From assembly GCA_946811185.2 (NCBI GenBank), contig OX328097.1, positions 4,140,242 through 4,204,241 of the forward strand: a DNA stretch of 64,000 bases. Direction: 5' to 3'. The translations under genes and the position numbers were made by a program. Below are positions 11,519 through 29,071 of this stretch, one piece after another. The stretch's first letter is position 1, and each line of letters starts with the position of its first letter. The notes beneath the pieces are model-generated. The model was not told the DNA's origin and searched no databases. It saw nothing but the letters and a program-made list of their open reading frames with translations. The DNA is from Hippopus hippopus (lineage: Eukaryota > Mollusca > Bivalvia > Cardiida > Cardiidae).

Positions 11519-14500
11519 GTATAATGTTTTATTAAATTGTAATGTGTTTTCGCGTTCAGATCGCCCCTGACGTTCGGCATACACATCCTGTCATTGTATT
11601 TTTTGGTTGAAACACAATCGTCTGTAAATGCCATCATATTTTGGATTTAAGATGAGACATAATTTCTGTCATCATGTGATTCTTTTCATTCAAGTACCAC
11701 TGTTTCAGGTAGAATAACTCTTTCTTCCTCAACAGACCTTACCCATACACGATTCAAATGTCCAGCATTAGTTTGAATACAAAGTGTTGAATTAGAAGAA
11801 GGAGCAGAACAATTATTCTTTAACTCTGTACCTAACCACTGAGTAAATCAAGGGAGAAAGGTGTCCCCTACGCAGGACTCAAACTCACAACCCCAGGAGC
11901 TCTAGTACAGCAGCACTATCAACTGAGCTAGCTGGGCATCTGGTTGTGAGTCTAGTCAGCGTCAACTACAACACCCCCCACACTTGATCTGTTGGGAGTC
12001 ATCCTCTGGTCCCAAAAAACCGCCATTGCCACATACCAGCGTTCACCAATTGACCTCATCGCCAATGAAGTTCATCAAGGGAGAAAGGTGTGCCCGATGC
12101 GGCACTCGAAACCCACAATCCTGGGAACACTAGTACCGCAGCTCTACCAACTGAGATAGACGGGCATCTAGTCATGAGTCTACCCAGGGTCAATTATAAC
12201 ACCACAAAGTTTTTGACCAGTCCAAACTGAAGTCATTCACAGTTGGCAAAGTTTTTTGTAATAGGGTGGAAAAGATTGTATGAAAAGCACTTTTCCCACA
12301 ATGTTTTCATAAGGTTGTTGAAACTAGGAATTGTTTAGTGAATGGTTAACATTACTACTTCACACTGAGCATGTATTTGTGAAATGTCTACTTTTTACTC
12401 AGTGAGAACAGATAGTAACAGGACTCACATTAGACCAGATTTTCTATTAACCAACTCTTAGCCAATTTGAAAATTTACAGTTTTTCTTCAAGAAAAATGT
12501 TAGATAATCAATCACTTAGGAAAAGTTTCAAAGTTATCAATTCTGGTACACAGTAAATGGTCATGATACTACTTTTAAATATTTCAGGTCAAAAACAAAA
12601 TGCCTGCACCAGTTCAGATTACAGCTGAACAACTTTTGAGAGAAGCCAAAGAGAGAGAACTGGAACTTGTTCCACCAGTAAGTATCTCATTAAAACTCAT
12701 TTTCTAGTAGTGTTGCAGACCTTTTTTTTTTCTTTCTTTCTTTTTTTATCTTGCAGTAAAACACATTTGAAAACTTAGTGGTAAAACTAAGGAAAGCTTG
12801 CTTATTAGAAGCCATTTCACATTTCCTCACATTATGTTCACATTCATTTATGTTATGATTATTTCTTTAATTATGTTGATAGCACAAATTTTACAAGGGT
12901 CTTTCTAATTTATTTTGTTGTGACTCTTTCTGCATGGCAACGAACAGGAAATAGGTAATATATCAGGGTTCTTATTTGACCCAGGACTCCTTGTTTTGAA
13001 GCTTGGAAATCCGAAATGGCCCTTTTTTGATGTTCAAAAAGATTAGCCTAAGCGTCAACCTGATGCATGAGATTACTGGCTAAAGTGTTATTTAAATTAG
13101 CTCACATGCATTCTGCAGAAATGTGATAAACACAATCAGGTGTCAAATGTGAAAGATGCACGCAGCTCTTTAACACAGCTACTCATGCTGGCGAATAGCA
13201 AGTCATTTTTGAAAATGTGATAAAGGTGTTAGTCAAATTCTCTAGTGTAAAATAACATGTTTTTAAGTTACCTGCTACCCTAATTGACAAATTCATGTCA
13301 AATCATGTAGTAATACTTGTAAAAAATTTAACTGTCATAAAAAAGATCACTGAAAAAACACGAAAACTATGACACAACAAAAGTCAGTTTAACATCATCC
13401 GATCAGAGGCACTTCAAACTATCTTTTCATCTTTGATAATAAATTAAAACAGTAAATTTACACTTATTTCTATTAAAAAAAAAAAAAAAAACAATAAGTG
13501 GAAGCTAAAATCTCTGTTTAATAATGAGATTATGAAAAACTTTGGTTGTTTTTGAAAAATGAAAATATACAACAACCTTTGAGGGGTGGGGGAATGGATG
13601 TAGGTCCTCTTGTCCTACAGTATTTGCACTAGAACAAGTATGAAAGAAATAAGTCTTTAATGGATATGACCTTTATATTCGCCCTTTTCCACAATGTTCT
13701 AAGCTATGAAAGGCAAATCAAGTTGTTCCAGCCACATTTGAAATGTCGTCTGCAAACACCTAAAACATGATCAGGTCTAAAATTTTGTTAAAAGGTTGTT
13801 TGTCTCTGTTTCTTCATAAAGATGAATTGCATGCTTGGGCTGCAAGTTAAAATTCATGTATCCACTTTATTCAAACAAGTCTGCACATAAGATTTATAAG
13901 GTATTTTCTTGTCTAATTTCTGTCCATGAATAAAGAACATAAATGAATAATTTTCTTTATTTCACCCTTAATTCTCCATAATAACTAAGTAATTTTGACC
14001 CTTGGGCATTTCTCTTTGACTCTTGGAAATTCTATGCTGATTCTTGAAAATTTGGGCCTAGGAGTTAATGACTCTTGGGATTCTGTACCTAGTGAGAACT
14101 CTGATATATTAAGCACTCAAACATTCAGAATTTACCACTGTTCAAGTGATGAAAAACAGAAATACACATTAATGTGTGAATGAGTTTAAATGTATTTCTT
14201 GATCCTAATATGTTACACTTAACTTACAATCGTACATAGAGTGGCAATTGAAGAAGCATTTGAAGAAAAATGCCTTTTGCAAATTGTATAGAATACATTG
14301 CAGGATGATGTATTGTTACAAATTTTTACCTACAATAATGTTTTGTTGAAATTTCCTTGGAATTTTTTTTCCACTGAGCAAAAAGATCACGAAGGGCTAA
14401 GAAGTGATCATTTTTGGAGAACTTTTAGTTTGAGCTTGTTTCTAAAGCAAATCCATTTTCTGTAATTATCATTCTTAACCCTGTACCACACAATCCCTTG

Positions 14501-17500
14501 TTTTAACAATCTGGAAAGAAAAGGCTTTTGAAAATAATGAGGGAAAGGGAGAAATACTGGTTTAGTTTTATAGAGATCTTTTTATGCTGATGTTTTATGC
14601 AGTACTACTTTTCACTAGAAATATAAAATACTCCCATAGTAAAGCAAAGAATTACTTTTCGGTTTTTATTACTCTACACTTCTCTCTTACAGCCTCCTAA
14701 ACAGAAGATATCTGATCCAGATGAGTTGTTAGAATATCAGCGACGACAAAGAAAGGTTTGTATTCTAACTCTAGATTCAGAAGCACCTTTTCGACTAAAC
14801 TATAAATTCTTTTACATACTATGTAACCCTTTGATAACTAAACTGGTGTTTAATTTTTTACCCCAAACAAGAAAACTTCTGACTCAACAAAATTTGTAGA
14901 TGACAAAATAAATGTGGCTCAAATTTTGATTTCTGTCTTTGATACAGTAGAAAACATTGTAGGAAAAGGAGAAAATACATTTTGAAAAGTCTTCTCCAGT
15001 AGGGTCGTAAAATTTCCTATAGTATTAGTAGCGGTGAAGCAGTTTTTGCATAACAAGTGATAAATACACTTTTAACGCCACAAATTATCAGGTGGCTTTG
15101 TAGCGCAGTGAGTCACTGACTCTGGCTTTGAAGTTTGTGAATTGTAGTCCCATTGGAAGGTGATATTTTCTCCAGCATTTTTTTTTTTTTTTTTTGCTGT
15201 TTTGATTTTCTACCCCCATCCCGCCCACTCCAAAAAGGCAGGGAAGCAAAATCTGGTTTGATGCCCCTTTAAAACATAGATGTTTCTGTATGTTTTTAGA
15301 TGTTTGAGGACAATATCAGAAAGAACAGGACACTGATGACTAACTGGATAAAATATGCAGGATGGGAAGAAAGTCAGAAAGAGATTCAAAGGTAAAAAAG
15401 ACAGCGCTACATAAACCCTGTACCAAATGCTCCAATTAACATTTAAACACTACTTTGAGAGAAGAATCTTGAAAACATAGTGGATAAAGGAGGAGATGCT
15501 GGTAACCAACATTTTCTCCTTTTCCCACAATGTTTTCTATGGTATCAAAGACAAATCCAATCATTTGATGTAGAATTAATTCCTGGTCTACAAATGCATT
15601 GATTTGGTAAGTCTGGTGAATAGTATTATGGAACTGAAAAGACATCAATTTATATGCTCGTCAAGACCAGTATGTTTTTGGTTTACATAAAGTCAGGGTG
15701 TTGAAACAACTTATAAAAGTACATACATGTACTTGTGAGTTTTGATAAAGATAGTTAAAATTGAAATAACGTTAGATGTACCCTCTTTTTGACAACTTGT
15801 TCTTTCTGTTTGATTTCTTCATAGATATGCAATATACTATATAGATTTACACAATTTAGAAATGTTTACTCTGTACAGAGTAAACATTTCTAAATTGTGT
15901 ATAATTCATTCCCTTAGGAATATTAAGTGGCTATATAGATTTATTTTCTTGCATGCAAGTATCCAAGTTTCTGTCACAAGTGCAGTGTTGCATCCAGGCT
16001 GCGCGATTGCAGGAATCCCCCTTTTTTTAATTCTGTCGCGCAAGTTCACGAACATGATTAGTGAGAAATCGCGTGAAGACGTTGTAACTCGCGCAAAAAC
16101 AAGAAACCACTGCGTGCAAAAAATAGTCAGTCTATTGAAACAACAGGAAAGTCCGACGAAGCTTCCTTACATCAATCGATATTATACTCATTGCTATTTT
16201 TAGACTTCGAGAATTCCAAATGGTGTCTGATCTCCATATTGAAGTTTTTGTAATAAGTAGGGAACCACTATTCTCTACGCATGCACAGTGAATGTGTAAT
16301 TACACATGTTTCTGTATTAAAGAAAAAAAACAATACAGTATATTCGCGCAGCAATTTTTAAGTGTGTTAAACAGTTTGACCGGTATATTAAAGCAGGATT
16401 AAACATGCCACTTAAACTAATTACGAACTTTTTTACGGGATTTGTTTGATCAAAAGACGACACAACCCCTGGTTTTGATAGATCGAGTGAAAACTGCGAA
16501 GAACAAATTGAAGTTCCTTCGGGAACCACCGCGGTCAAGTAAGGGCGATTTGCTAGAACTGTAAGTCAGGTAATAATCATTCAAATTAAGGGAACGTCAT
16601 CATCATTGTTTGATTATAACACTTGTGTGATAGATCTAGTTTGGAAAGGAAAAAGGAATGGCGTCTTTTTCAGTATCACACCAGTGCATAAAAATAAGGT
16701 AATATTTTTTGAATGATTAAAGTTTTTTCATTCCCCCTCTTTCGCTAATTCCATGGGGGAGCTCCCCCTCCTGGCAGAAATCCTAGATGCAACACTGAAG
16801 TGAAAAGGTTGAAAGATGTGACTTGTCTTTGCCTTAGTGTTAAGTGTATCATTAAACAATTTGTTGTACCTTAAAGATATTTTTGAACATGCCAAAATAA
16901 ATTCATAGAGGATATTTGTTTTTTGGGGTGAAAGATAGAAATTTATTTCATCGAGTGAACATCATCGGTAATATTTTCACGAGTGGCTGTGCCACTCGTG
17001 AAAATATTACCAATGATGTTCACGATGATGTTCACTCGATGAAATAAATTTCGATCTTTCACCGCAAAAAACAAATATTCTATTTATTTCATGCTTTTAA
17101 CCCTTTCTGGGGGGAACTTAATCAAAATCCAGTACAGTTCTTTTTCGGTTATTCCCCGTGGCATACCCCCTCCGCATAGCAACACATTACAATATTACAT
17201 CAAGCACGAGAAATGTAAGGTAAATTACGTCATATTTCCATCTGGTTGTGAGGCATGCCAATTTTACCTAGGTAACTAGTGCGCGGGAACAACTGTTTCC
17301 GCCTTCAATTGAAGAGTTAGGATATAAAAATCAGTATTTTCACTGGTCGTAACCATGAAATATTGAAAAATATTTCACCAATATTTCTTGATAACCTACC
17401 GGAAAGCATGAAAAAAAAAATTATACATAGTACAAACATTTGAAATGAACAGGTAAATGAGCCAGACTCTGGCAAAAGGGGGTTTAACTCTACCAAACGA

Positions 17501-20500
17501 CAAAATTTTAGCCTGGTCCAAATTGAAAGAACTTGCAGACGACAAAATAAATGTAACTCAAAAATTGAAATTTGCTTCTAGTAGGGTAGAAAACATTGTG
17601 GGAAAAGGAGAAAATGCTGGTTACCAGCATTTTCTCCTTTTCCCACAATGTTTTCAGAAGGCTTCTTTCTCAAGGTCGTGAAAACCAGGGATTGTTTGGG
17701 AAAGGGTTAATGCATCTCCATGATGCATTATACCAAGCAAGAGATTGTATAATTAGAGATCCATAAAATCCATTTTGTCTAACAACCGACTAAATCATGA
17801 GGTACACTGATGCTTTGACATGCCAAAAATTGACAGTAGCAAAAAGTTTCAACCCAGGTTGGCCTGCGCGGACTGGGCAGGCTGACGTGCATAGGCTGAC
17901 TTAATTAGATACTCTTTGCAGATGCATTAGGCCCTCTTTTCACAGAGCATGGCTCATATGAGTTTCAATGATAAAGAAAATACAGGAATAAAAGCAATTA
18001 GGAAAATGCTCCTTTTCATACAATACTGTCAACTGCATTGGTTTTTACAATGAATCTATTATTGTATTTCAGGGCTAGATCTGTTTATGAAAGAGCACTT
18101 GATGTGGATCACAGAAACATAACAGTATGGCTGAAGTATGCAGAAATGGAAATGAGGTACAATTACATTAACAGTTATAAACATGACTGATTGGTCTAAC
18201 GGCCAAATTTTCAGATACTGCCACTCCATTTCACCTTCTGCCAGACCAGCACAGTCCCCTTTCCTCCAATTTTGGGTAAAATGGGCACTGTCTGGCAGCT
18301 GTTCCACATTTGTGGATGTAGCTTTATGGCATTACCAGACAACAAATCAAATGCGACTAGAATTATGAGACTTGTCTTATAGATGATAGAAAATACTGTT
18401 GAAAAAAGAAAAAATCTTTGAATTTGGACCCAAAATGTTCTAAATGTTCCACAAAATTTAAATGTTTGCCACCTTTTATTCATTTGATGGTGGTCAAGTT
18501 ACCACTCATACAAAGGCCAGTGAAAGCCAAAGCTAACATTTGGCTGGTACAGATACCTATACTGCTCTAAAGTTAAGTGTAATTCTTTTGTATTGTGTGT
18601 GTTTCTGACATGAATCATATAAAAAAAAAAAACACACACACACAAACATTGCTTTACCCTCCAAAAAGCTTGTTAACCCATCACCAAACAATTCCAAGTT
18701 TTAACAACCCCAAGAAAAAAGGCTTTTGAAAACATTCCGGAAAAAGGAGAAAGTGCTGGTAACCAGCTTTTTTTTCTTTTCTTGCAATGTTTTCTTTTCT
18801 TTCCAAGGCAAAGTCCAACTTTTGGGTTACAAGTAATTTTGTTGTCTTCAAATGCCTTCAATTTAGAGAAGTCTAAATATCTGTTGTTTAGTAAAGAGCT
18901 ATTTGATCATATGATTTTAGAGGTGGAGGTTCTGATATCTGTCAAAATAAAGATACATTTATTTTAGAATTTAAAATATTGTTGCAGATGTCGGCAGATC
19001 AACCATGCTAGAAATATATGGGACAGAGCCATTACAGTCCTACCTAGAGCAAACCAGTTCTGGTATAAATACACATATATGGAGGAAATGCTGGGAAATA
19101 TTGCTGGTAAATCCTTAAACTTGTAATGTGAAAGCCGAATTGTGTATTTTGTTGTCTAAAGATTCACTTTAATATTCAAGTTTAACCCTTTACCATATAG
19201 TAAAATTTTTGACATCCAAGTTGAAAGCATTTGTAGATGACAAATTAGATGAGGCTCAAGTAGTTGAATTTAACCTGGACAGAGAAAAAAAAATATCCCA
19301 GTAACCTGTTTCAGTAATGATCAAAGCATATCCGAAAATTCTCTCCCACAGTCCCTATTTTTATTTACGTGTTGCTGATGATAGATAGCAAATCTAACAC
19401 ACTATTTAATTGGTGCTTTTAGAACAGACTGCAACCAGTGATTTTGCATATCACAGGAATTACAAATTTTAACTCCATCAGCCAAGGGTGAATAAAGGAA
19501 TGTTACTGATTATCACCTTTGGCTAGTGAAGATAGATTTAAACTTAAGATGTGGCAGAGGAAATTTCTTCCCAAATGTAATAAATTCCATCATTTAACCA
19601 CATAGAATTTGCAATCTAAAGATGCTTTTAATCAGGACAAATCTGAGAAAGAGTTGTATACTTGCTGTATTTTCAAAGAGATGGATTATAATTAGAGCCA
19701 ACTGGCTAGAGGATTATGAGTGTCCTGCAACAAGGAACATTTTCTAATGCATGAGAGAGAGAGATGGGGTACCAAAAAAAAAATGTCTGAAATGCAATAA
19801 ACTGAAATCTGGAACAATATTATTTTACAGGGTGTAGACAAGTGTTTGAAAGGTGGATGGAATGGGAGCCGGAAGAGCAAGCATGGCACTCCTACATAAA
19901 CTTTGAACTAAGGTACAAAGAGCTGGACAGGGCTAGGATGATTTATGAAAGATATATCCTTTCATGTATATCACTTTAATTGTATGATAATTCTTAACTT
20001 TTTCCAAAAGGACAAATTTTAGTCTTTTCCAAACTCAACTTTGACTCTTTACATTTGTAGTATGTCTGTCATTACTGAAAATGTTTACTTCAAACTCAGA
20101 CTGATTGTCAGTTTTCAAAAGGGGAACCCCTTACTAGTATGGCAGGTAACCATCAAAATGTTTTTGACACAGTTATGCCACTTTTTCAAGTTTAAATTGT
20201 CATTGATTTCCAAAAGCAACTGCAGCCAAGCCGTAGGACCGGCATGCAGTGTTCTTGTTTTGTCACCATATGCTTTAAGTCTACTTTGTCTAAAAATTGT
20301 TGTCTGTTATCCTATTACCAAACAATCCTAACAACCCTGTGGAATTAAGCTTTTGAAAACATTGTGGGAAAAAGAGAAAATGATGGTAACAAGCTACCAT
20401 TCCAAAGACAACAATAACCTTTTAAGCAACATTTAATTTGTCTTCTGCAAATGCTTTCAATTAGGTCACATCTAAAATTAGTTGTAAGGTAAAGAATTAA

Positions 20501-21616
20501 AGAGTGATTACATAATGCATATCTTAACCCTTTACCACACGACAAAATTTTAGACCTGTCCAAATTGAAAGCATTTGTAGATGACAGTTTTAACGTGGCT
20601 CATATGAAATGATTTTTCTTTGATAGGGTAGAAAACGTTGTGGGAAAAGGAGAAAATGCTGGTAACCAGCATTTTCTCCTTTTCCCACAATGTTTTCAAA
20701 AGCCTTCTCTTTCAGGGGCATCAAAAGTCGTCATTGTGTGGTAAAGGGTTAAATATGACTCCTTAACTTTGATTCACTCGTAATCACCCACCCTGAAGTA
20801 AAAAACTGGATCAAATATGCCAAATTTGAGGAGAAAAACAGTTACATAAACAGTGCACGGTCTATCTATGAAAGATCCATTGAATATTTTGGAGAGGACA
20901 ATATGGATGAAAAATTGATAACAGCTTTTGCAAAATTTGAGGAAGGTCAGAAAGAGGTAGTGTATCTAGCAATTAATGTAAAATCTTAACTTTTTACCAG
21001 ACAATCCCATAATTTAACAATCCTGGACAAAATTGCTTTTTGAAAAGATAATTGAAATGGGAGAAAATGCTGGTAACCAGCACTTTCTCCTTTTCCAACA
21101 ATATTTTCGATCCAAACATAGAACTTAAGCTCATGTGTATGCTGTTAGTTTCAAAGGGTCTAAATATGTTGTGTGAAAGAAGGGTTAATCATGTCTAAAT
21201 GATCCATGGTCTTTGAAAAGGAGGCTTAATGCATTTGCAAAAAGTATTGAACAATGTCAGCCTGCGCAGTCCCCGCAATCTGACATTGGTTGATACTCTT
21301 TGCTTTTAGTAAATTATATACATATCAAAGGACCATTAATACCTCAAGATCCAGTCGATTGTTAGAATGTATTTTATAGATCCATAATATGAGCCTTGCT
21401 CTGGCAAAAGGGGGCTTAATGCATCTCCGTTATACACTATACTAGGCCAAGTCATCACATAATTATGGATCCATAACATCCGCTTTTTTTAATAAGCGAC
21501 TTAATCCTGAGGTAGATTGGTCCTTTAACAAACAGAAAATTGGCCTATAGCGAAAAGTTTCGGCCCAGGTCAGCCTCTCTCTCTCTCACACACACACACC
21601 CACCCACCCACACACA

Positions 21617-21695
<79 letters not shown>

Positions 21696-24600
21696 GATGA
21701 TGATGATGATGATGATGACTTGCTTGGTAAAATGTACCACAGAGATGCATTAAACCGCCTTTAGGTCAGAGTATGGCTCATATATAGAGATATTGCAAAA
21801 GCAATAGGGAGAATGGTCTAATGTGACTGTGAAAGCTTTAAAAAAGCTACAGTTGCAAAGTATTCTACTCTAGGGTTTGATGTATTTTTAAGTTAACTGT
21901 ATAAGTGGATATTATTGTGGGTCTAAAATTTCGCGAATCACCAAATACTGACCTTACGCATGTTTTTAATTTCTGCAAGGGCTGAAGACAGATTTCATAA
22001 ATTTCTACTCTAACTGTGTACTATAAAACTAACTTATTATTCAATTCAATAAATCTCAAATTTTGCTTCGATGAAACTTCTGTAATTGGCAGTATTAACC
22101 CCCGCTAGACTGGTATTCTGGTCAAATTTGATGAAAAAGGGGCACTCATTGATGTCGACAAGGGTGCCAGTCAAGTGCTTCCACATGACCCAGTGTCTTT
22201 GCAAAATATACCTTAATCAAGCCTAAATCTACGCTTGCGGATATCTTTGCGACTTTTATCAATATGCGAAAATCACAAAGGTTTCCATGACTTCAGCATT
22301 TGCGGATTTACAGTATTTCATAAATAATATTTGTAAAAATCATCAGCTATAAATTTGTTTCATGAAGCAATAAGCTCATTTTAATCTTTCAGCACAAGAG
22401 AGCAAGGGTTATGGACAAAATTCAGGAAAAGGTACCATAGGTTATAAAAAAGCAATTATTTCCATGCAAATTGTGTCTGAATGTTGATTTAATCCGATTC
22501 TTTCAGCACGAGAGAGCAAGGGTTATATACAAATATGCCTTAGATCACTTACCTAAAGACCGGTGTGAGGAAATCTACAAAAATTACACAATCCACGAGA
22601 AGAAGTTTGGGTCTAGAACAGCCATTGAAGATGTGATTGTCAGCAAGAGGAGGTTCAAATATGAGGAGGTAAACAGATCTTTTTGTGTAGAGTTTCATAA
22701 ATACATCAGTTTCAAACAATATTTTATTTTCTTAACCCTTTACCACACAATCCTGAGTTTTAATGACCTTTCTGAGAAATAGATTTTTTTGAAAACACTG
22801 TGGGAAAAGGAGAAAATACTGGTAGCCTGTCATTTCTAAGTACTATTTTTCACTTTTTACTGTTCTTTTCAGACTAGAAGCTAACGACAGCACTGGAAAG
22901 AAAAAAATTAATTTTGAAAAAAAAATCTCTCTTTAAAATCAGACAAACTGACTATTTCAAAGTATGAAGACTTCTAATAAATCTCTACTTTCAGGAAGTA
23001 AAAACTAATCCCTTGAACTATGATGCTTGGTTTGATTATCTAAGATTACTGGAGGCAGATGGCAACACAGAACAAATCAGAGACACATATGAAAGAGCTA
23101 TTGCAAACATCCCACCCGCTCAGGTACAGTTCTACATTTAAATAAACCTGTCTGTTATTTAGTCAACTTTGAATGTATGTCAGAACTTTCTTGTGTGGTG
23201 TTCTAGTTTGGGAATTATAATACTAACTATTGCTGAAATTGACAGACAAAGAATTTGTGGCAATGAGATGATTTGTCTAGGAAGTAAAGTTATCTGTGGG
23301 AAATGTATTGTTAGCGGTTATTGTTTGATTAATCATTTTCAATTGCTCTGTTTCTGATAAAAGATTTTAATTGGAGATTTGAGATGGTAACACTCTTGAT
23401 TTATTGTCAGTGTTCGTACTTTAGTTCTGTTACTCTAATCCTTTTTGCTTTATATCTTTTTGCCTTTTATAAATATTTAACTCTTTTCCTTTGTTTTAGG
23501 ATAAGCGTTTATGGAGGAGATATATCTATTTGTGGATCAATTATGCATTGTATGAAGAATTAGAAACAGAGGATATTGATAAGACTCGTGAAGTGTACAA
23601 AGCTTGTTTAGATATCATTCCGCACAAAAAATTTACGTTTGCCAAAATATGGTTACTGTTTGCCCAGTTTGAGGTACGGCAGAAAGACCTACAGGCAGCT
23701 AGAAAAGTCTTGGTAAGATTTTATTTCTACATGTAAAGCCATGCTTTGGCTGGAGGGGGCTTAATGCATCTCCGTGATGCATGATACCAAGCAAGTCATC
23801 ATATAGTTGTGGATTCATAACATCAATTTTGTCTAACAACCGACTGAATCATGAGGTACACTGGTCCTTTGCCATGCAGAAAATTTAGGAAAAGCAAAAA
23901 AAAAGGTTTTGGCTCAGGTCAGCCTGTGCGGATTGCACAAGCTGACTTGGGTTGATACCTTTTGCAGATGCATTAAGCCCCCTTTTCACAGAACATGTCT
24001 CAGATATATTTGTCATATTTCACAGTCAACATTTTTTGTAGGCTTATACTTGTTGAAGTGTCTGAATAAGTTTGCAGAAAAAGCTGACCTGTTAATAAAT
24101 AATCTCTAATATGCTAACTTTTGACAAATTTCAATTACAGATATTCTTTGGGGAAGAAGAATTGATTTTCCTACTTGTCACTATATATTTCAATGTATTT
24201 TACATAAAAGGCATTGAGAAGAAGTTTCTATTAGGACATCATTTAGGAAAATACATATGTAAAGTCTGGATGATATTGTTATGGAGGAAATCAGGACAAC
24301 ACTGTGATTATTGGAGAAATTATATATTTAGAGCAATTTTTACAGAGTCACAATGGTTTCTTTTGCCTTACTTTTTAGTCAGCAGCATTTGAAAGAGCTC
24401 CAAAATAAATCTTTAGGTTGTATTTTTAAGGTAAGATATATCTATATTTAAAATTGTTTCAACTGTTTAAGTTTTTCAATCCACAAAACAGGGTGTAGCT
24501 ATTGGGAAATGTCCAAAGACAAAACTGTTCCGTGGTTATATAGATATGGAGCTACAGCTGAGAGAGTTTGAGAGATGTCGAATACTGTATGAAAAGTTCC

Positions 24601-27600
24601 TCGAGTTTGGATCAGAAAACTGCATGTCTTGGATGAAGGTATGACTAAACCTTTTATCAGGATTCTTGAGGATGCAAAAGTTCATTGCACAACTTAGTAC
24701 TCCCTGAGACAAATTTACAGCTGAAAAGTGTTATATTGTAACTCTGTACCAAACCATCCTTGTTTAAGGACCCAGAGGAAAAAGGCTCTTGATAACCTTG
24801 TGACAAAATGAGAAAATGCTGGTAATAAGCAATTTCTCCTTTTCTTGCAATTTTTCTACCCTTCTAATGAATAATTTGTTTTTGTCTGCAAATGGTTTCA
24901 GTTTTGACGAGCATAGAGTTTGTAATACTGTAAAAAGTAAATACATTAATTTGTGTGAAATTATGGTTGAAAAAGTGTTCTGTACAAATAACTTTCCCTA
25001 ATACCACAATAATTTCAAAAGTGGTATGTTGTGAGACAAAAAAAGTGTCTGCCTTTGGAAATCCCTTATACCATCTGTATCACCAATGATTTCTTTCTTA
25101 AATACGATAACACAACATGAAAAGAGAAAGAATGGCTTAACATTGTAAAAGAATGATAACAAATGTAGTGTTTTTTCAATTTTTATGTAGAAAAAGGGAA
25201 GCAAAAACACTTCTCTGACCATGGTTAGATCTTTACTTTATTGTGCCAAAAGAAGTTAATTCCTTTTTACAAGTAATTTACTCCTTTTCACACAGTATTT
25301 ATATTTGTACAGAAATATGTTAATGTTTTTTTACACAGTAACGATATGATTATTGTTTCCTTACAGTATGCAGAGTTGGAGAGCATTTTAGGGGACATGG
25401 AAAGAGCCAGGGCAATCTTTGAATTAGCAGTATCACAGAAACAGCTAGATATGCCTGAAGTGTTGTGGAAAGCTTATATTGACTTTGAAATAGAACAAGA
25501 AGAGTATAATAACGTGAGAAACCTCTACAGACGCTTGTTGAAGAGAACACAACATGTAAAGGTACAAAACTTTTGTCTTCATCCTTTTGTTCTGTTTAAA
25601 GTTCATTAAAGTTTAAGTCATCTGGTAGAGAGTTAAAGTATCCGTGACATTATGAATTCCTCAGGGAATGAATGAAACACTATGAAAAAAGACATTCTAT
25701 TGTTCGATAATTTGGCTATTGCCCTTTTCAAGAGTTTGAAACACTTTTTCCTGTAGAACATTTTTTAAATGTTCTGGAGGAAAAGGTGTCTCGAACTCTT
25801 CAAAAAGGCAATAGCCAAAATATCGAACAATAGAGTGTTGTTTTTTTAAAGTGACCATGTTCTAAACATTTCGCTAAGATTTTCAACCCCTCTACCTACC
25901 ATTTGAGCAACATTTACTTCATTGTCTGAAAATTCTTTTAATGTGGACAAGTCAAAAAATTTTGTTATTTGGCAAAGTTAACTCTTTACCACACAATCCG
26001 GACTGTTTAATGACTCAGAGAAAGAGGCTTTTTGAAAACATTGTGGGAAAAGGAGAAAATGCTGGTAACCAGTATTTTCTTCTTTTGGCACAATGTTCTC
26101 CTTCCTGTCATAGACAAATGTACCCATATTCTCTACTTGTATTTCCTGTCATTTTAGGTCTGGATAAGCTTTGCTCAGTTTGAAAAGACCACAGGGGAGC
26201 CAGAGTGTATCAAAAATGCAAGAAGAATATATCGAGAAGCATCGGTAACTTTAAAAAGATCTGAGGAGAAGGAGGAGAGACTAATGGTTCTTGAGGCATG
26301 GCAAGGATTTGAGGTTAGGCATTTTCCTTTTTTTTTTTTTTATGGAAAAAAATTAATGTAAATTATGCAATGAAATAGAGGATATAATTTATTTTTTGGT
26401 GAAAGATTGAAATTTATTTCATCAAGTGAATATCATTACAGTCAAACTTCGGAAGCTCGAACACCCCTGGGCCTAGGTAATTTGTTCGAAATATCGGTAG
26501 TTCGACGTATCCATATTTCAAGGTACGAAGTGGTCAGTGAACGAGTTACATGTATTCTTATTGCATATTTATGACTTTTATATTTGGAAATATCACACAG
26601 AACACACCACATACCTTTGTCATTTTACAGGAATTGGCTGTCAAATTAGTGAAAATATCTTGTTTTCGGCCGAAATCGATACGCTCTGTTAATGTTTTTC
26701 ATTTTTTGAGAGTATCCATTTCGGCCGAAAGCAAGCTATTTTCACCAGTTAAACGGCCGATTCCTGGGGTCATTTTCTTTGCACATATCTAAAAGTCATT
26801 TTATCAGAAAAGAAAGGACATTTGCAGATATCGAGAGCGAAACATCACCTTGTTTATGTTCTAATTATAACTTCTATCAACGCTACATGTGCGGATTAAG
26901 ATCACAGTTGCGGTTAATGAAACCTACTGTGTTGAAAAGCAATACTCTTCATGAAAACATAGTGTCACAAAAATAACTTGACCACTAATTTAGGTCAACC
27001 ACCTCGAAAAACAAAAAAATAAAAGCAAATCAATTATTCAATCACGGCTAAACAATTTGTAATTGACACTTTGATCAAGTGTGTGTATATTTTACAGTAA
27101 GTGTTAAAAACATGCACCTTATCCAATATTTGACAGACGATTACCAGCGTATCCAATTAACAATGTAGGTGTGAAACCCAACGTCTGATTGTTGACTAAC
27201 CCTTTGTTCGACTTCTGAAAGGTAAAATACACAGGAAAATGAACGACGGGACCGTGATACGTGTTCGAAAGTTCCAATTAAGGGTTGTGCGAGTTTTCCG
27301 AGGTAGAACAATATGAATTATATAGAGATTTTGCCGGGACCGATATCGTTGTTCGAGCTTTCTTTGGTATTCGAAATTACCCATATTCGAGCCACCGAAG
27401 TTTGACTGTAGTAATATTTTACCAATTATGTTCACTAGATGAAATATATTTTGATCTTTCGCTGAAAAAAAAAAATATTCCATTTATTTCATGCTTCTAA
27501 TCCCTTTTTTGTTGGGACTTTTATCAAAATCCAGTGCAATTGTTTTTGGTAATTCCCTGTCGCAGAATCCCCCCCCCCCCCATACAGATAATAGAGATAA

Positions 27601-29071
27601 TAAAGCATTACAATGTTACATAAAACGCAAGAAATCTAGCGTAAATGCGTGTAAATTACGCCATATTTCTCTCTGGTAGTGGTTGAATGGTATGTACTGT
27701 TTACCTAGGTAACCAGTGCGCGGGAACTACTGTTTCTACCTTCAATTGAAGAGTTATGAAAATATTTACTTGCAAAAATTCACAAAGTTGCGAAAGTTTT
27801 GTAAGTAGATTTACGAATTTCGTAATTCTGAATGTAGATGTAAAGATTTGACAATTCTTCTGCAAAAACTTACAAATTGTTCATAAAACAGTACCCCAGG
27901 GGAAAATTCCATACTGCAGGTCCATACTGGTTGCTTTGAAATCAGTTAATTTTACTTGTCATTACCATGATTTATCAAACCTCATAACCCACCATTATTT
28001 CCTGATAAATTACTGAAAAGCATGAAAGAATATCTGATATTCACAGAGAATGCCGTTTTATTTGTGAAACCCTAGGATACGTTTGGAAAGAAAATGCAAT
28101 GTTAATATTTCAATTTATCATCTAGGCTGAATGTGGAGATGAAGAATCACAGAAAGAGGTAGAGAAGTTATTACCACAAAAAGTTAAAAAGCGCAGGAAG
28201 ATACAGACAGAGGATGGGGTAAGGCTTCAAAACATCATTATTATGTCTGTGTTTCTGTCAGTCCAACATTAATATATTAGAACACATGAAATTGTAATAA
28301 AGTAACATACCTGATGGGTACCAAGTGTTAAGGTCCAATTATCTATGAGCATAGATTGTCAAAAAATCATGCAAACTTTAATGTTTGTTTAACTTGCAAT
28401 GTTCAATTACAAAGTTAAAGCAGATGACTTTGTAAACATCATTGAAAAACACAAATAATCAGATCAAATGTAGGTTTAGTACATGCTTGTTATATGTGAC
28501 AACATTGTGGCAAAAGAAAGCTAATAAACCCTTTACCAAACAATCTCTAGTGCAAGTTTTAGTGGCTGTCAGAGAAATGAGTGTTAAAACCAGGTAAAAA
28601 GTAAACAAAAGATAGAGTGACTTTGCAACTTTAAGTCTAGTTTTAAAATTCATTTTCCTGCCATGGACTAAATCTTGGACCACTCATGTGCTAAGAGACG
28701 GTCTTATTCACAAAAAGTTTCCATACCTTTTAATGGTATGATTTAAATACAAATGCATTTAAACACCTGCATTGTTTATTTTTGGCTGCTACTGGGCGTT
28801 TAATGTATGAACTTGTAACAAGAATTTAGGAAGAGTAGGGAAAAGCATATTTTATCATAATATTCATTTTCAGTCTGAAGCTGGTTGGGAAGAATATTAC
28901 GACTACATATTTCCGGATGAAGCAGCAGCACAACCCAACCTCAAACTCTTGGCTATGGCCAAGATGTGGAAAAAACAACAAACCACAGGCAGTGATAATG
29001 AGAATGACAGTGATGAACATCCAAAAGACGACAGTGATGGAGACGATTCAATGGATGACACAGAAGACTGA
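11462..29071 (+). CDS. CRNKL1: crooked neck-like pre-mRNA splicing factor (CRNKL1/Clf1), 16 exons
   Basis: Crooked neck is a core scaffold of the Prp19/NTC complex of the spliceosome, acting in the nucleus. Sixteen exons (11462-11518, 12588-12677, 14693-14755, 15300-15391, 18073-18156, 18988-19106, 19831-19953, 20778-20956, 22507-22668, 22995-23123, 23500-23712, 24492-24638, 25367-25561, 26158-26313, 28126-28218, 28874-29071) join without a frameshift into 2100 nt, 699 residues, close to the roughly 690-residue animal orthologues. The N-terminus carries the family's [23 protein letters not shown] segment, followed by HAT (half-a-TPR) repeats from about residue 70 to 600 with recurring W-x-x-Y/F-x-x-x-E motifs (e.g. 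[10 protein letters not shown], residues 85-94), then a basic patch (residues 619-628) and an acidic Asp/Glu/Ser tail. The start is the first ATG of exon 1; no other Met precedes it in frame within the exon. All introns are GT-AG except intron 7 (AT-AC, U12-type). Identification is by recalled family sequence; very secure. Confidence 0.97.
11845..11982 (-). mobile_element. tRNA-derived SINE, copy 1 of a tandem pair (CRNKL1 intron 1)
   Basis: On the - strand: AGCTAGCTCAGTTGATAGTG head. Neighbouring copy at 12071-12215 shares the GGGAGAAAGGTGT segment and the reversed tRNA head. Confidence 0.75.
12071..12215 (-). mobile_element. tRNA-derived SINE, copy 2 of a tandem pair (CRNKL1 intron 1)
   Basis: On the - strand: TCTATCTCAGTTGGTAGAGC head. 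Diverged from copy 1 at many positions, so not a recent duplication. Confidence 0.75.
12206..12349 (+). mobile_element. family A fragment (CRNKL1 intron 1)
   Basis: Hairpin arm lost; CTTTTCCCACAATGTTTTCA and AATGGTTAA end remain. Confidence 0.6.
12588..12677 (+). CDS. CRNKL1: CRNKL1 exon 2 (residues 20-49)
   Basis: Acceptor ATTTCAG, donor GTAAGT. Encodes the highly conserved [20 protein letters not shown] stretch and the following ERELELVPP. Phase 0 at both ends. Confidence 0.95.
12721..13679. other. CRNKL1 intron 2, unique part
   Basis: AT-rich intronic DNA with poly(T)/poly(A) runs; no element recognised. Confidence 0.5.
13680..13796 (-). mobile_element. family A right half (CRNKL1 intron 2)
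   Basis: CCCTTTTCCACAATGTTCTA to TCAGGTCTAAAATTTTG. Confidence 0.7.
14475..14561 (-). mobile_element. family A left half (CRNKL1 intron 2)
   Basis: TTAACCCTGTACCACACAAT to GAGGGAAAGGGAGAAATACT. Confidence 0.75.
14693..14755 (+). CDS. CRNKL1: CRNKL1 exon 3 (residues 50-70)
   Basis: Acceptor CTTACAG, donor GTTTGT. Encodes [20 protein letters not shown] then K, the family's linker before the first HAT repeat. Phase 0 both ends. Confidence 0.94.
14825..15025 (+). mobile_element. family A, deleted hairpin (CRNKL1 intron 3)
   Basis: GTAGGAAAAGGAGAAAATAC then directly AAAAGTCTTCTCCAGTAGGG. Confidence 0.75.
15094..15175 (+). repeat. tRNA-like SINE head, degenerate (CRNKL1 intron 3)
   Basis: GTGGCTTTGTAGCGCAGTGA followed by GTGAATTGTAGTCCCATTGG; poly(T) follows at 15178-15196. 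Confidence 0.45.
15300..15391 (+). CDS. CRNKL1: CRNKL1 exon 4 (residues 71-101)
   Basis: Acceptor TTTTTAG, donor GTAAAA. Encodes [20 protein letters not shown], the first HAT repeat; the last codon (Arg) is split after two bases. Confidence 0.95.
15413..15618 (-). mobile_element. family A (CRNKL1 intron 4)
   Basis: AACCCTGTACCAAATGCTCC start; hairpin with a few mismatches about 15484-15534. Confidence 0.8.
15848..15901. repeat. perfect 54-bp palindrome without spacer
   Basis: Each 27-bp half (left half starting TACACAATTTAGAAATG, ending CTCTGT) is the exact reverse complement of the other. It lies 80 bp left of the hAT-like element in CRNKL1 intron 4. Confidence 0.95.
15983..16797. mobile_element. 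hAT-like non-autonomous element (815 bp), 5-bp target duplication AAGTG
   Basis: Begins CAGTGTTGCATCCAGG and ends CCTAGATGCAACACTG (imperfect inverted termini), flanked by AAGTG at 15978-15982 and 16798-16802. No transposase motif is recognised inside. Lies in CRNKL1 intron 4. Confidence 0.7.
16905..17325 (+). repeat. family J repeat, intact copy with foldback
   Basis: A foldback (16930-17068) with TTTATTTCATCGAGTGAACA arms and ACGAGTGGCTGTGCCACTCG centre is followed by a tail reaching CTTCAATTGAAGAGTTA. The same tail follows the interrupted copy near 27.4-27.77 kb. Confidence 0.85.
17459..17957 (+). mobile_element. family B copy split by a family A insertion (CRNKL1 intron 4)
   Basis: Left 17459-17483, right 17711-17957; central hairpin TTGGCCTGCGCGGACTGG is degraded. 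Confidence 0.85.
17484..17710 (+). mobile_element. family A, intact, inserted at a TTAA inside a family B copy
   Basis: TTAACTCTACCAAACGAC to GGGAAAGGGTTAA; perfect hairpin about 17595-17651. Flanking B sequence is GGCAAAAGGGGGT on the left and TGCATCTCCATGATGCA on the right, contiguous in other B copies (GGGGGCTTAATGCATCTCC). Confidence 0.95.
18073..18156 (+). CDS. CRNKL1: CRNKL1 exon 5 (residues 101-129)
   Basis: Acceptor ATTTCAG, donor GTACAA. Encodes [19 protein letters not shown] and LKYAEMEM, a near-exact match to the family's second HAT repeat. Split Arg codons at both ends. Confidence 0.96.
18160..18660. other. CRNKL1 intron 5, unique part
   Basis: No recognised element; GTCTGGCAGCTGTTCCAC-type sequence has no relative elsewhere in the window. 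Confidence 0.5.
18673..18900 (-). mobile_element. family A (CRNKL1 intron 5)
   Basis: TTAACCCATCACCAAACAAT start; hairpin partly decayed. Confidence 0.82.
18988..19106 (+). CDS. CRNKL1: CRNKL1 exon 6 (residues 129-169)
   Basis: Acceptor GTTGCAG, donor GTAAAT. Encodes [20 protein letters not shown] and [20 protein letters not shown]. Confidence 0.96.
19182..19275 (+). mobile_element. family A left half (CRNKL1 intron 6)
   Basis: TTAACCCTTTACCATATAGT to GATGAGGCTCAAGTAG. Confidence 0.8.
19831..19953 (+). CDS. CRNKL1: CRNKL1 exon 7 (residues 169-210), ends at an AT-AC intron
   Basis: Acceptor TTTTACAG. Encodes [20 protein letters not shown] then [20 protein letters not shown]. The exon must end at 19953: the next bases are ATATCCTTT, the U12-type AT-AC donor. 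Joining the final T to TC at 20778 restores Phe of the conserved ERF-V motif. Reading through instead gives the non-family residues YILSCI. Confidence 0.93.
20020..20285 (+). repeat. dispersed repeat shared with 36450-36700 (U12 intron)
   Basis: GAAAATGTTTACTTCAAACTCAGAC, AACTGCAGCCAAGCCGTAGG-like and TGCAGTGTTCTTGTTT-like segments parallel 36450-36700; a third fragment (GGCACATGCATGCGGTGCTC) is at 42578-42600. Confidence 0.65.
20306..20500 (-). mobile_element. family A (CRNKL1 U12 intron, first copy)
   Basis: CCTATTACCAAACAATCCTA start, GGTAAAGAATTAA end; right hairpin arm lost. Confidence 0.82.
20524..20752 (+). mobile_element. family A, intact (CRNKL1 U12 intron, second copy)
   Basis: TTAACCCTTTACCACACGAC to GTGTGGTAAAGGGTTAA with a perfect hairpin. 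Ends 7 nt before the U12 branch motif (20760). Confidence 0.95.
20778..20956 (+). CDS. CRNKL1: CRNKL1 exon 8 (residues 210-269)
   Basis: Follows the AC acceptor of the minor-class intron; donor GTAGTG. Encodes [20 protein letters not shown] and then the [15 protein letters not shown] and [11 protein letters not shown] segments of the family. Confidence 0.95.
20986..21188 (-). mobile_element. family A (CRNKL1 intron 8)
   Basis: TTAACTTTTTACCAGACAAT start, AGAAGGGTTAA end; hairpin slightly decayed. Confidence 0.85.
21205..21390 (-). mobile_element. family B copy, reverse (CRNKL1 intron 8)
   Basis: GAAAAGGAGGCTTAATGCAT start; hairpin TCAGCCTGCGCAGTCCCCGC. Confidence 0.75.
21391..21785. mobile_element. 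foldback chimera of two family B head ends around a microsatellite
   Basis: Left: GAGCCTTGCTCTGGCAAAAG through the first hairpin arm. Right: GATGACTTGCTTGGTAAAAT..GCATTAAACCGCC..GAGTATGGCTCAT, which is the same B end inverted, with the CA/GAT tract between. Confidence 0.75.
21576..21718. repeat. compound (CT)(CA)(AT)(GAT)n microsatellite inside a family B foldback
   Basis: CT units run into a roughly 100-bp CA tract with CCCA interruptions, then ATAT and about eight GAT units. It replaces the central hairpin of the surrounding family B-derived structure. Confidence 0.95.
22393..22431 (+). other. 39-nt in-frame duplicate of the start of CRNKL1 exon 9 (candidate microexon)
   Basis: CTTTCAG precedes and GTACCA follows a 39-nt open segment encoding [13 protein letters not shown]. 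It is nearly identical at its 5' end to exon 9 ([13 protein letters not shown]) and is phase 0 at both ends, so inclusion would add 13 residues without a frame change. No orthologue known to me has this insertion. It may be a duplicated exon head that is skipped, or an alternative microexon. Confidence 0.55.
22507..22668 (+). CDS. CRNKL1: CRNKL1 exon 9 (residues 270-323)
   Basis: Acceptor TTCTTTCAG, donor GTAAAC. Encodes [20 protein letters not shown] then the family's [10 protein letters not shown] and [14 protein letters not shown]. Phase 0 both ends. Confidence 0.96.
22732..22825 (-). mobile_element. family A left half (CRNKL1 intron 9)
   Basis: TTAACCCTTTACCACACAAT to GGGAAAAGGAGAAAATACTG. 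Confidence 0.8.
22995..23123 (+). CDS. CRNKL1: CRNKL1 exon 10 (residues 324-366)
   Basis: Acceptor CTTTCAG, donor GTACAG. Encodes [20 protein letters not shown] and [12 protein letters not shown]. Confidence 0.96.
23500..23712 (+). CDS. CRNKL1: CRNKL1 exon 11 (residues 367-437)
   Basis: Acceptor TGTTTTAG, donor GTAAGA. Encodes [20 protein letters not shown] and [20 protein letters not shown], very highly conserved HAT repeats. Confidence 0.97.
23739..24005 (+). mobile_element. family B copy (CRNKL1 intron 11)
   Basis: GCCATGCTTTGGCTGGAGGG start; hairpin CAGCCTGTGCGGATTGCACA; ends TTTTCACAGAACATG. Confidence 0.85.
24492..24638 (+). CDS. CRNKL1: CRNKL1 exon 12 (residues 438-486)
   Basis: Acceptor AAAACAG, donor GTATGA. 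Encodes [20 protein letters not shown] and [20 protein letters not shown]. The polypyrimidine tract is weak but the protein match is unambiguous. Confidence 0.95.
24737..24940 (-). mobile_element. family A (CRNKL1 intron 12)
   Basis: GTAACTCTGTACCAAACCAT start; hairpin GAGAAAATGCTGGTAATAAG partly decayed. Confidence 0.8.
25367..25561 (+). CDS. CRNKL1: CRNKL1 exon 13 (residues 487-551)
   Basis: Acceptor CCTTACAG, donor GTACAA. Encodes [20 protein letters not shown] and the strongly conserved [20 protein letters not shown] and RTQHVK. Confidence 0.97.
25685..25848. repeat. foldback element, arms about 75 bp
   Basis: TTCTATTGTTCGATAATTTG at the left is mirrored by a near reverse complement at the right (AATATCGAACAATAGAGT). 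Centre AACATTTTTTAAATGTT. Single copy in the window, CRNKL1 intron 13. Confidence 0.85.
25870..26115 (-). mobile_element. two family A fragments sharing a TTAA (CRNKL1 intron 13)
   Basis: The right end of one copy (to GGCAAAGTTAA, 25981) runs straight into the left end of another (TTAACTCTTTACCACACAAT, from 25978). Confidence 0.8.
26158..26313 (+). CDS. CRNKL1: CRNKL1 exon 14 (residues 552-603)
   Basis: Acceptor CATTTTAG, donor GTTAGG. Encodes [20 protein letters not shown] and the [17 protein letters not shown] end of the HAT domain. Confidence 0.95.
26380..27770 (+). repeat. family J repeat, copy interrupted by the pogo-like element
   Basis: Left part 26380-26438 and right part 27409-27770 align with 16905-17325; the insert is the 970-bp pogo-like element. 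Confidence 0.85.
26439..27408. mobile_element. pogo/Tigger-like non-autonomous element (970 bp) inserted in family J repeat, TA duplication
   Basis: Ends CAGTCAAACTTCGGAAGCTC and (inverted) GAGCCACCGAAGTTTGACTG with TA on each side (26437-26438 and 27409-27410). It interrupts the foldback of a family J copy whose halves continue at 26380-26438 and 27409-27770. No transposase homology is visible in its short ORFs. Lies in CRNKL1 intron 14. Confidence 0.8.
28126..28218 (+). CDS. CRNKL1: CRNKL1 exon 15 (residues 604-634)
   Basis: Acceptor ATCTAG, donor GTAAGG. Encodes the [17 protein letters not shown] basic segment (family: MPEKVKKRRKVQTDDG), a plausible nuclear localisation signal. Confidence 0.95.
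28874..29071 (+). CDS. CRNKL1: CRNKL1 exon 16 (residues 635-699, stop)
   Basis: Acceptor TTTTCAG; stop TGA at 29069-29071. Encodes [20 protein letters not shown] then [15 protein letters not shown], the family's conserved C-terminal block, and an acidic tail ([20 protein letters not shown]). Confidence 0.96.
   Translation, partial: SEAGWEEYYDYIFPDEAAAQPNLKLLAMAKMWKKQQTTGSDNENDSDEHPKDDSDGDDSMDDTED

What the first reader, a model, noticed from the sequence alone, without database searches (positions are those of the whole stretch)
19954..20777. AT-AC U12-type intron in a gene encoding a spliceosome core protein
Seen: intron starts ATATCCTTT, has TCCTTAAC ending 10 nt before a terminal CAC, and splicing T+TC restores the conserved ERF-V residues. 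Known: these match the minor (U12) spliceosome 5' site and branch-site consensus. Inference: expression of crooked neck, an NTC component, would depend on minor-class splicing in this animal, a possible cross-regulation between spliceosome parts.
Basis: partly seen in the sequence, partly recalled or inferred. Interest (0 to 1): 0.78.

Follow-up and report, generated by a model that had tools for sequence, protein, structure and literature searches.

The report
Ancient minor-class intron in crooked neck
A gene for a core part of the splicing machine carries one rare "minor" intron that should need the second, minor splicing machine, and related genes in many other animal-like genomes appear to carry the same intron at the same place, so this is a real and old feature of a known kind.

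Summary
The + strand carries crooked neck (CRNKL1/Clf1): 15 exons mapped, 14 introns, 13 GT-AG and one AT-AC at 19954-20777. That intron starts ATATCCTTT, has TCCTTAAC ending 10 nt before its end, phase 1; splicing T|TC restores ERFV..HPEV, and no tested GT-AG pair does. The genome encodes U11, U12, U4atac and U6atac snRNAs.

The new evidence is comparative. Homologous exon fragments in a protein database run on into the intron. Of 130 that leave exon homology at this codon, 128 read Tyr-Ile-Leu, i.e. T|ATATCCTT in frame, and conservation then stops; none shows the Cys of a GT donor. Ten have an exon identical to human CRNKL1 over 41 residues. On the acceptor side, 43 of 43 fragments with intron-derived residues fit ...AC|, and a branch-site word sits at the window's spacing in 18 of 39.

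So this is an old AT-AC U12-type intron, lost in some lineages, not peculiar to this animal. Dependence of crn on minor splicing is a strong inference; cross-regulation of the spliceosomes is untested and has precedents. New member of a known kind, probably already in intron databases that I could not open.

The parts
12588..29071 (+). crooked neck (CRNKL1/Clf1) coding region: 15 mapped exons, 14 introns, 680 codons plus stop; first exon not located
   Evidence: exon table and single open frame; (human CRNKL1 8c6j_S, E 5e-264); Pfam HAT repeats
19831..19953 (+). exon upstream of the AT-AC intron, ends ...YER + first base T of the Phe codon (phase 1)
19954..20777 (+). AT-AC U12-type intron, 824 nt
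   Evidence: same signals in relatives
19954..19962 (+). 5' splice site ATATCCTTT (full match to the U12 AT-AC consensus as recalled)
   Evidence: T|ATATCCTT read as YIL in 128 of 130 homologous ORFs that diverge at the site
20760..20767 (+). branch-site element TCCTTAAC, last C 10 nt before the intron end
   Evidence: Leu-Asn/Asp (CTT RAC) at the same spacing in 18 of 39 fragments long enough to show it, against 5 of 547 at 24 other codon offsets
20776..20777 (+). AC 3' splice site
   Evidence: last intron base C inferred in 43 of 43 fragments with intron-derived residues
20778..20956 (+). exon downstream of the AT-AC intron, starts TC of the Phe codon
19977..19979 (+). in-frame TAA reached after YILSCISL if the intron is retained
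20524..20752 (+). MITE-like insertion with TTAACCC...GGGTTAA ends and a near-perfect inner palindrome, ending 7 nt upstream of the branch element
   Evidence: I3, I4
19966..20798 (+). best-scoring frame-preserving GT-AG alternative (decoy; product ERYILSLKNW loses FVITHPEV)

Best explanation
Shown: crn has one AT-AC intron with complete U12-type donor and branch signals, at a position where homologous genes in many other animal-like genomes carry (as read through protein) the same AT donor, AC acceptor and branch spacing; the host genome encodes the four minor snRNAs. Inferred from established knowledge of minor splicing: U11 and then U6atac pair with the donor (host U11 AAAGGG can pair +4 to +9 UCCUUU; host U6atac carries AAGGA, complementary to UCCUU), U12 pairs with the branch element and bulges the branch A, and the minor spliceosome excises 19954-20777, joining T|TC into the Phe codon. 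A transcript that keeps the intron stops after eight extra codons, so functional Crn protein should depend on minor splicing. Because Crn belongs to the Prp19-associated core used in splicing generally, low minor-spliceosome activity could lower it and so reach major splicing; that last step is conjecture.
For: Exact signals and phase. Best of 102 frame-preserving splice choices is this AT-AC pair (444 against 409 for the best GT-AG). 128 of 130 homologous ORFs diverging at the site read YIL while the next codons are unconstrained (entropy 0.07-0.13 bit at codons 1-3, 3.2-4.1 at codons 4-12). With an exon-only query, 89 of the 120 listed hits read YIL. 0 of 130 read Cys, the mark of GT at this site. 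43 of 43 acceptor-side fragments fit AC; branch word at the window's spacing in 18 of 39 against 5 of 547 at other offsets. Intronless versions read ER[FY]V..HPE straight through (28 of 181 by script), which is the predicted joined product. U12 106 bits, U11 88.7, U4atac 90.1, U6atac 92, each over its Rfam cut-off. Host U12 has GTAAGGA, host U11 begins near CAAAAGGG, host U6atac has AAAAGGAGAGAAGG.
Against: No transcript was available, so use of 19953/20778 is not shown. The comparative donors, acceptors and branch words are read through amino acids, not DNA, from nearly all unnamed sources, and the fragments are related: 114 of the 128 with a full 41-residue stretch fall into 10 clusters, 71 of them in one. 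The U12-branch pairing score does not single this intron out: intron 24639-25366, a GT-AG intron, scores -11.7 against -8.2, because TTTCCTTAC overlaps its 3' splice site. Pyrimidine content before the 3' site is not lower than in the other introns (12/17). Some lineages have no intron there or another boundary: 11 of 181 ORFs read FVQV; P0156 and P0161 begin at a different boundary; P0271 reads YTL and P0236 reads FEY.
Confidence: 0.95

Rival explanations
1. An AT-AC intron of the major (U2-type) class, as known for sodium-channel genes.
For: AT-AC ends alone do not decide the class; U2-type AT-AC introns exist (passages of PMC2831892).
Against: Those passages say the U2-type AT-AC introns of the sodium-channel genes have G at +5; here +5 is C, +4 to +9 can pair with host U11, and a U12 branch element sits at the short U12 distance, with donor, acceptor and branch spacing shared by relatives.
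Confidence: 0.02
2. A major-class GT-AG intron at 19966-20798 is used, giving ERYILSLKNW.
For: It keeps the frame.
Against: It replaces the conserved FV..HPEV; score 409 against 444; homologues with no intron at this place keep FV..HPEV; in the 43 informative relatives exon homology resumes at V.VHPE, not at KNW.
Confidence: 0.01
3. A lineage-specific gain of a minor intron in this animal.
For: Some homologues (arthropod-like, my label) lack it. The fly U12 paper PMC2952598 has no occurrence of crn or crooked; PMC2831892 has none of crooked or CRNKL1 (crn was not searched there).
Against: Ten ORFs with an exon identical to human CRNKL1 over 41 residues, and 128 in all, read the same donor; the branch spacing matches too.
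Confidence: 0.01
4. The conserved YIL is a coding feature of a retained-intron protein form, not a splice site.
For: The residues are conserved at protein level.
Against: Conservation stops after three codons, where the U12 donor ends; there are 121 distinct 8-residue tails among the 128; the far end of the intron separately fits an AC acceptor and a U12 branch word.
Confidence: 0.01

Closest known systems
U12-type AT-AC (A-type) minor introns
   Same: ATATCCTTT donor, TCCTTAAC branch element 10 nt from the AC end, one minor intron among major ones, position shared by distant homologues
   Different: Nothing in structure; only the host gene, crn/CRNKL1, which none of the minor-intron papers whose text I searched names (main texts only)
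Drosophila SF3a1 (CG16941) minor intron and other splicing-related genes with minor introns (LSM12, ZRSR2)
   Same: Minor intron inside a gene for a splicing-related protein (passages of PMC2952598 and PMC2831892)
   Different: SF3A1's is GC-AG in the fly and absent in human; the crn one is AT-AC and, by the fragments, shared with human-like genes
SRSF10, SNRNP48, RNPC3 and CENATAC minor/major cross-regulation circuits
   Same: Link the activity of one spliceosome to the supply of a splicing protein (passages of PMC9895063, PMC8329584, PMC8280824)
   Different: Those have competing or tandem sites that make alternative mRNAs; in the window there is no second exact RTATCCTTT, and no alternative mRNA of crn is known to me

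Membership tests
U12-type (minor) intron | AT-AC or GT-AG ends with 5' site RTATCCTTT | tested here: met
   ATATCCTTT at 19954-19962, the only exact RTATCCTTT in the window
U12-type (minor) intron | Branch element close to TTCCTTRAC (recalled consensus) | tested here: met
   TCCTTAAC at 20760-20767; the preceding base is C, not T
U12-type (minor) intron | Short branch to 3' splice site distance | tested here: met
   10 nt after the branch C; branch A taken as 20766 (recalled), 11 nt from the intron end; a passage of PMC6717393 gives 11-13 nt as optimal
U12-type (minor) intron | No polypyrimidine tract needed before the 3' site | tested here: inconclusive
   12 of 17 pyrimidines at -20 to -4, within the 8 to 15 of the nine other introns scored
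U12-type (minor) intron | Host has the minor snRNAs | tested here: met
   U12, U11, U4atac, U6atac each over Rfam cut-off in the own genome
U12-type (minor) intron | Same class at the orthologous position in other species | tested here: met
   128 of 130 diverging ORFs read YIL; 43 of 43 acceptors fit AC; read through protein, species nearly all unnamed
U12-type (minor) intron | Excised by the U12-dependent spliceosome in cells | not testable with these tools
   no RNA data
CRNKL1/Clf1 (crooked neck) family | HAT-repeat protein collinear with human CRNKL1 | tested here: met
   502 of 502 query residues aligned without gap to 8c6j_S; Pfam HAT_Syf1_CNRKL1_N and _C
Minor/major cross-regulatory circuit (SRSF10, SNRNP48, RNPC3 type) | Competing or tandem sites whose choice makes an unproductive mRNA in response to splicing-factor level | tested here: inconclusive
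   intron retention meets a stop after 8 codons, as expected of most introns; an in-frame cryptic GT-AG pair exists; no second exact RTATCCTTT in the window; response not testable

The most novel reading that the evidence does not exclude
The old AT-AC intron is kept in CRNKL1 because it makes supply of a Prp19-associated core protein follow minor-spliceosome (and CENATAC) activity, so that part of the brain-growth phenotype of minor-spliceosome disease runs through reduced CRNKL1, whose own variants cause microcephaly with pontocerebellar hypoplasia.
Probability: 0.1. Interest if true: 0.75.

Novelty: new member of a known kind. Interest (0 to 1): 0.38.

Why it matters
If the human intron is as the fragments indicate, CRNKL1 belongs on the list of minor-intron genes that also build the spliceosome. 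That gives a concrete, checkable prediction: retention of this one intron in cells with U12, U4atac, CENATAC or ZRSR2 defects. It also shows that exon fragments predicted from unannotated contigs can be read as a record of splice-site class at an orthologous position.

Tried and rejected
Motif frequency as evidence: rejected on its own, since by these counts neither the exact donor nor the branch word is enriched in the window; the donor with up to one mismatch is (42 hits against 27.9 expected), which I did not follow up. Duplex energy of host U12 with the intron ends: not discriminating, one GT-AG intron of the ten scored does better. A second branch-like TTCTTAAC at 19991: an AG follows closely but the downstream sequence is not coding; it looks like the end of an old copy of the MITE-like repeat (72% match of 20000-20038 to 20531-20569), so I dropped it. 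Rfam on the window: 0 matches. Search for a spliced retrocopy or a second crn copy in the own genome: not completed, so single copy is not tested.

Papers: searches joining CRNKL1 or crooked neck with minor-intron terms returned 3, 0, 7, 0, 0, 1 and 0 papers, overlapping. Of these I opened passages of PMC12256911, PMC9895063 and PMC9505925; PMC10098413, PMC3628832, PMC12208539 and PMC8999970 I saw only as listings. None of what I saw describes a minor intron in CRNKL1. (wider terms) led me to open nothing further. Other papers, passages only: PMC2952598, PMC2831892, PMC10639083, PMC6717393, PMC7367187, PMC9501576, PMC8329584, PMC8280824; in PMC7845644 the terms had no occurrence. Supplementary tables, where gene lists live, could not be opened.

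Bias check: the first exon search used a query with eight intron-derived residues, which could favour YIL (82 of 109). The repeat scored exon residues only (P0066, residues 1-50): 89 YIL of 120 listed; 246 were found, the other 126 not listed. P0066 is itself a YIL hit.

Rows dropped: one search examined 180 of the 181 union ORFs (P0110 left out) and anchored 169; one search used 64 of the 120 listed of 133 hits; the other 56 are accounted for.

Full report
Observation. The finding's coordinates and sequence are exact. The + strand holds the crooked neck gene: 15 exons in one open frame of 680 codons plus stop, first exon not found, with 14 introns of which 13 are GT-AG and one, 19954-20777, is AT-AC. 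A central stretch of 502 residues aligns without a gap to human CRNKL1 (8c6j_S, E 5e-264), with Pfam HAT repeats of the Syf1/CRNKL1 kind. The intron is phase 1 and splits the Phe codon of ERF.

Is it chance? The motifs are not rare by themselves: RTATCCTTT occurs once against 1.75 expected; TCCTTAAC with up to one mismatch 57 times against 62.7, three of them exact. They count because they lie on two boundaries that homology fixes. Of 102 frame-preserving choices among GT-AG, GC-AG, AT-AC and AT-AG pairs near the boundaries, this AT-AC pair scores best against human (444); the best GT-AG pair scores 409 and deletes FVITHPEV.

Comparative test, donor side. My reading is that gene prediction without introns on animal contigs turns exons into ORFs that run on into the intron. 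In this gene T|ATATCCTT reads Tyr-Ile-Leu; T|GT... would read Cys. Searching 5.8 billion proteins with the exon plus its read-through gave 109 hits; a second search scoring exon residues only gave 246, of which 120 are listed. The union of what was listed is 181 ORFs: 128 YIL, 28 reading straight on as ER[FY]V..HPE (no intron), 13 other (11 of them FVQV, a different exon end; P0236 FEY; P0271 YTL), 11 not anchored by my pattern, 1 ending at the site. By eye on that printout, 7 of the 11 unanchored also read through, 3 stop before the site and P0291 has inserted residues. Of the 130 anchored ORFs that leave exon homology at this codon, 128 read YIL and none reads Cys; entropy is 0.07, 0.13 and 0.07 bit at the three codons and 3.2-4.1 bits in the next nine. 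In the exon-only search alone, 89 of 120 listed read YIL. The 128 have 70 distinct exon strings and 121 distinct tails, but they are related: 114 with a full 41-residue stretch fall into 10 clusters, 71 in one. Ten have an exon identical to human CRNKL1 over 41 residues. The fragments are nearly all unnamed; the labels vertebrate-like, human-like and arthropod-like are mine.

Comparative test, acceptor side. A search with the next exon gave 133 hits, 120 listed. 64 were anchored: 43 carry intron-derived residues, 14 start at or inside the exon, 7 read through from the previous exon. In all 43 the residue spanning the site is Leu (40) or His (3); if the mature residue is Phe or Tyr, as in the homologues, that requires C as last intron base, while an AG end would give Val or Asp. 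In all 43 the residue before it has a codon ending in A, as AC allows (a weak test, since 12 of 20 residues do). Leu-Asn or Leu-Asp (CTT RAC) stands at exactly the 10-nt spacing of the window in 18 of the 39 long enough to show it, against 5 of 547 at 24 other codon offsets; Ser-Leu-Thr (TCC TTA ACN), 8 nt from the end, in 5 of 43. The 56 unanchored hits: 48 have six or fewer residues before KNW, 3 read through (P0138, P0181, P0188), 3 start at another boundary (P0156, P0161 and the Mytilus galloprovincialis record P0165), 2 lack the anchor. So some lineages have lost the intron or have another boundary.

Machinery. The window's genome (1.07 Gb, 34 contigs) encodes U12 (106 bits), U11 (88.7), U4atac (90.1) and U6atac (92; a second copy at 51.8 has no exact match to the donor-pairing motif), each over Rfam's cut-off. 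Host U12 has GTAAGGA, able to pair TCCTT(A)AC with one bulged A. Host U11 begins near CAAAAGGG, able to pair +4 to +9 with one wobble. The duplex score does not single this intron out: it ranks second of ten, behind a GT-AG intron.

Consequences. Retention gives a stop after eight codons (19977-19979). De Wolf et al. report that 92% of A-type minor introns respond to CENATAC loss (PMC8280824, passages), so CRNKL1 is predicted to respond; that main text does not name it. CRNKL1 variants are associated with severe microcephaly and pontocerebellar hypoplasia (PMC12256911, passages; its only mention of the minor spliceosome is in a reference title), and U4atac defects with microcephalic dwarfism (abstract and passage of PMC6717393). 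The link between the two is conjecture.

Known or new? Minor introns in splicing-related genes are in print: SF3A1 in the fly but not human, LSM12 in both, ZRSR2 as a fly twintron. Molluscs show relative minor-intron enrichment (PMC10639083, passage). Seven searches joining CRNKL1 or crooked neck with minor-intron terms showed me no paper that describes this intron (four of the papers found were not opened), but gene lists sit in supplements that I could not open, and a genome-wide classifier should have caught the human one.

Noticed in passing
20524-20752, with further TTAACCC/GGGTTAA ends across the window and similar repeats within the 3-kb loci L001 and L002: A MITE-like repeat with TTAACCC...GGGTTAA ends (piggyBac-like by recall) and a near-perfect inner palindrome recurs in the window and near the U12 and U11 snRNA genes; one copy ends 7 nt upstream of the branch element without touching it.
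   Followed up: partly
22390-22431: A partial tandem copy of the start of the exon at 22507 (TTTCAG + CACAAGAGAGCAAGGGTTATG...) lies about 115 nt upstream, a possible decoy or alternative acceptor.
   Followed up: no
19966-20798: A frame-preserving GT-AG pair overlaps the AT-AC intron and would replace FVITHPEV by YILSL.
   Followed up: partly
L005 (G000:C5:29271769-29271886): A second, weaker U6atac-like copy (51.8 bits) has no exact match to the AAGGAGAGAAGG motif and may be a pseudogene.
   Followed up: partly
P0165 (Mytilus galloprovincialis record, 115 aa): The deposited crooked neck protein begins just after this intron's position with unrelated residues, as if the AT-AC intron had broken automatic gene prediction.
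   Followed up: no
P0076, P0080, P0083, P0087, P0090, P0093, P0095, P0104, P0105, P0108, P0109: A group of 11 homologues reads ERFVQV and then diverges, suggesting a different intron close to the same place.
   Followed up: no
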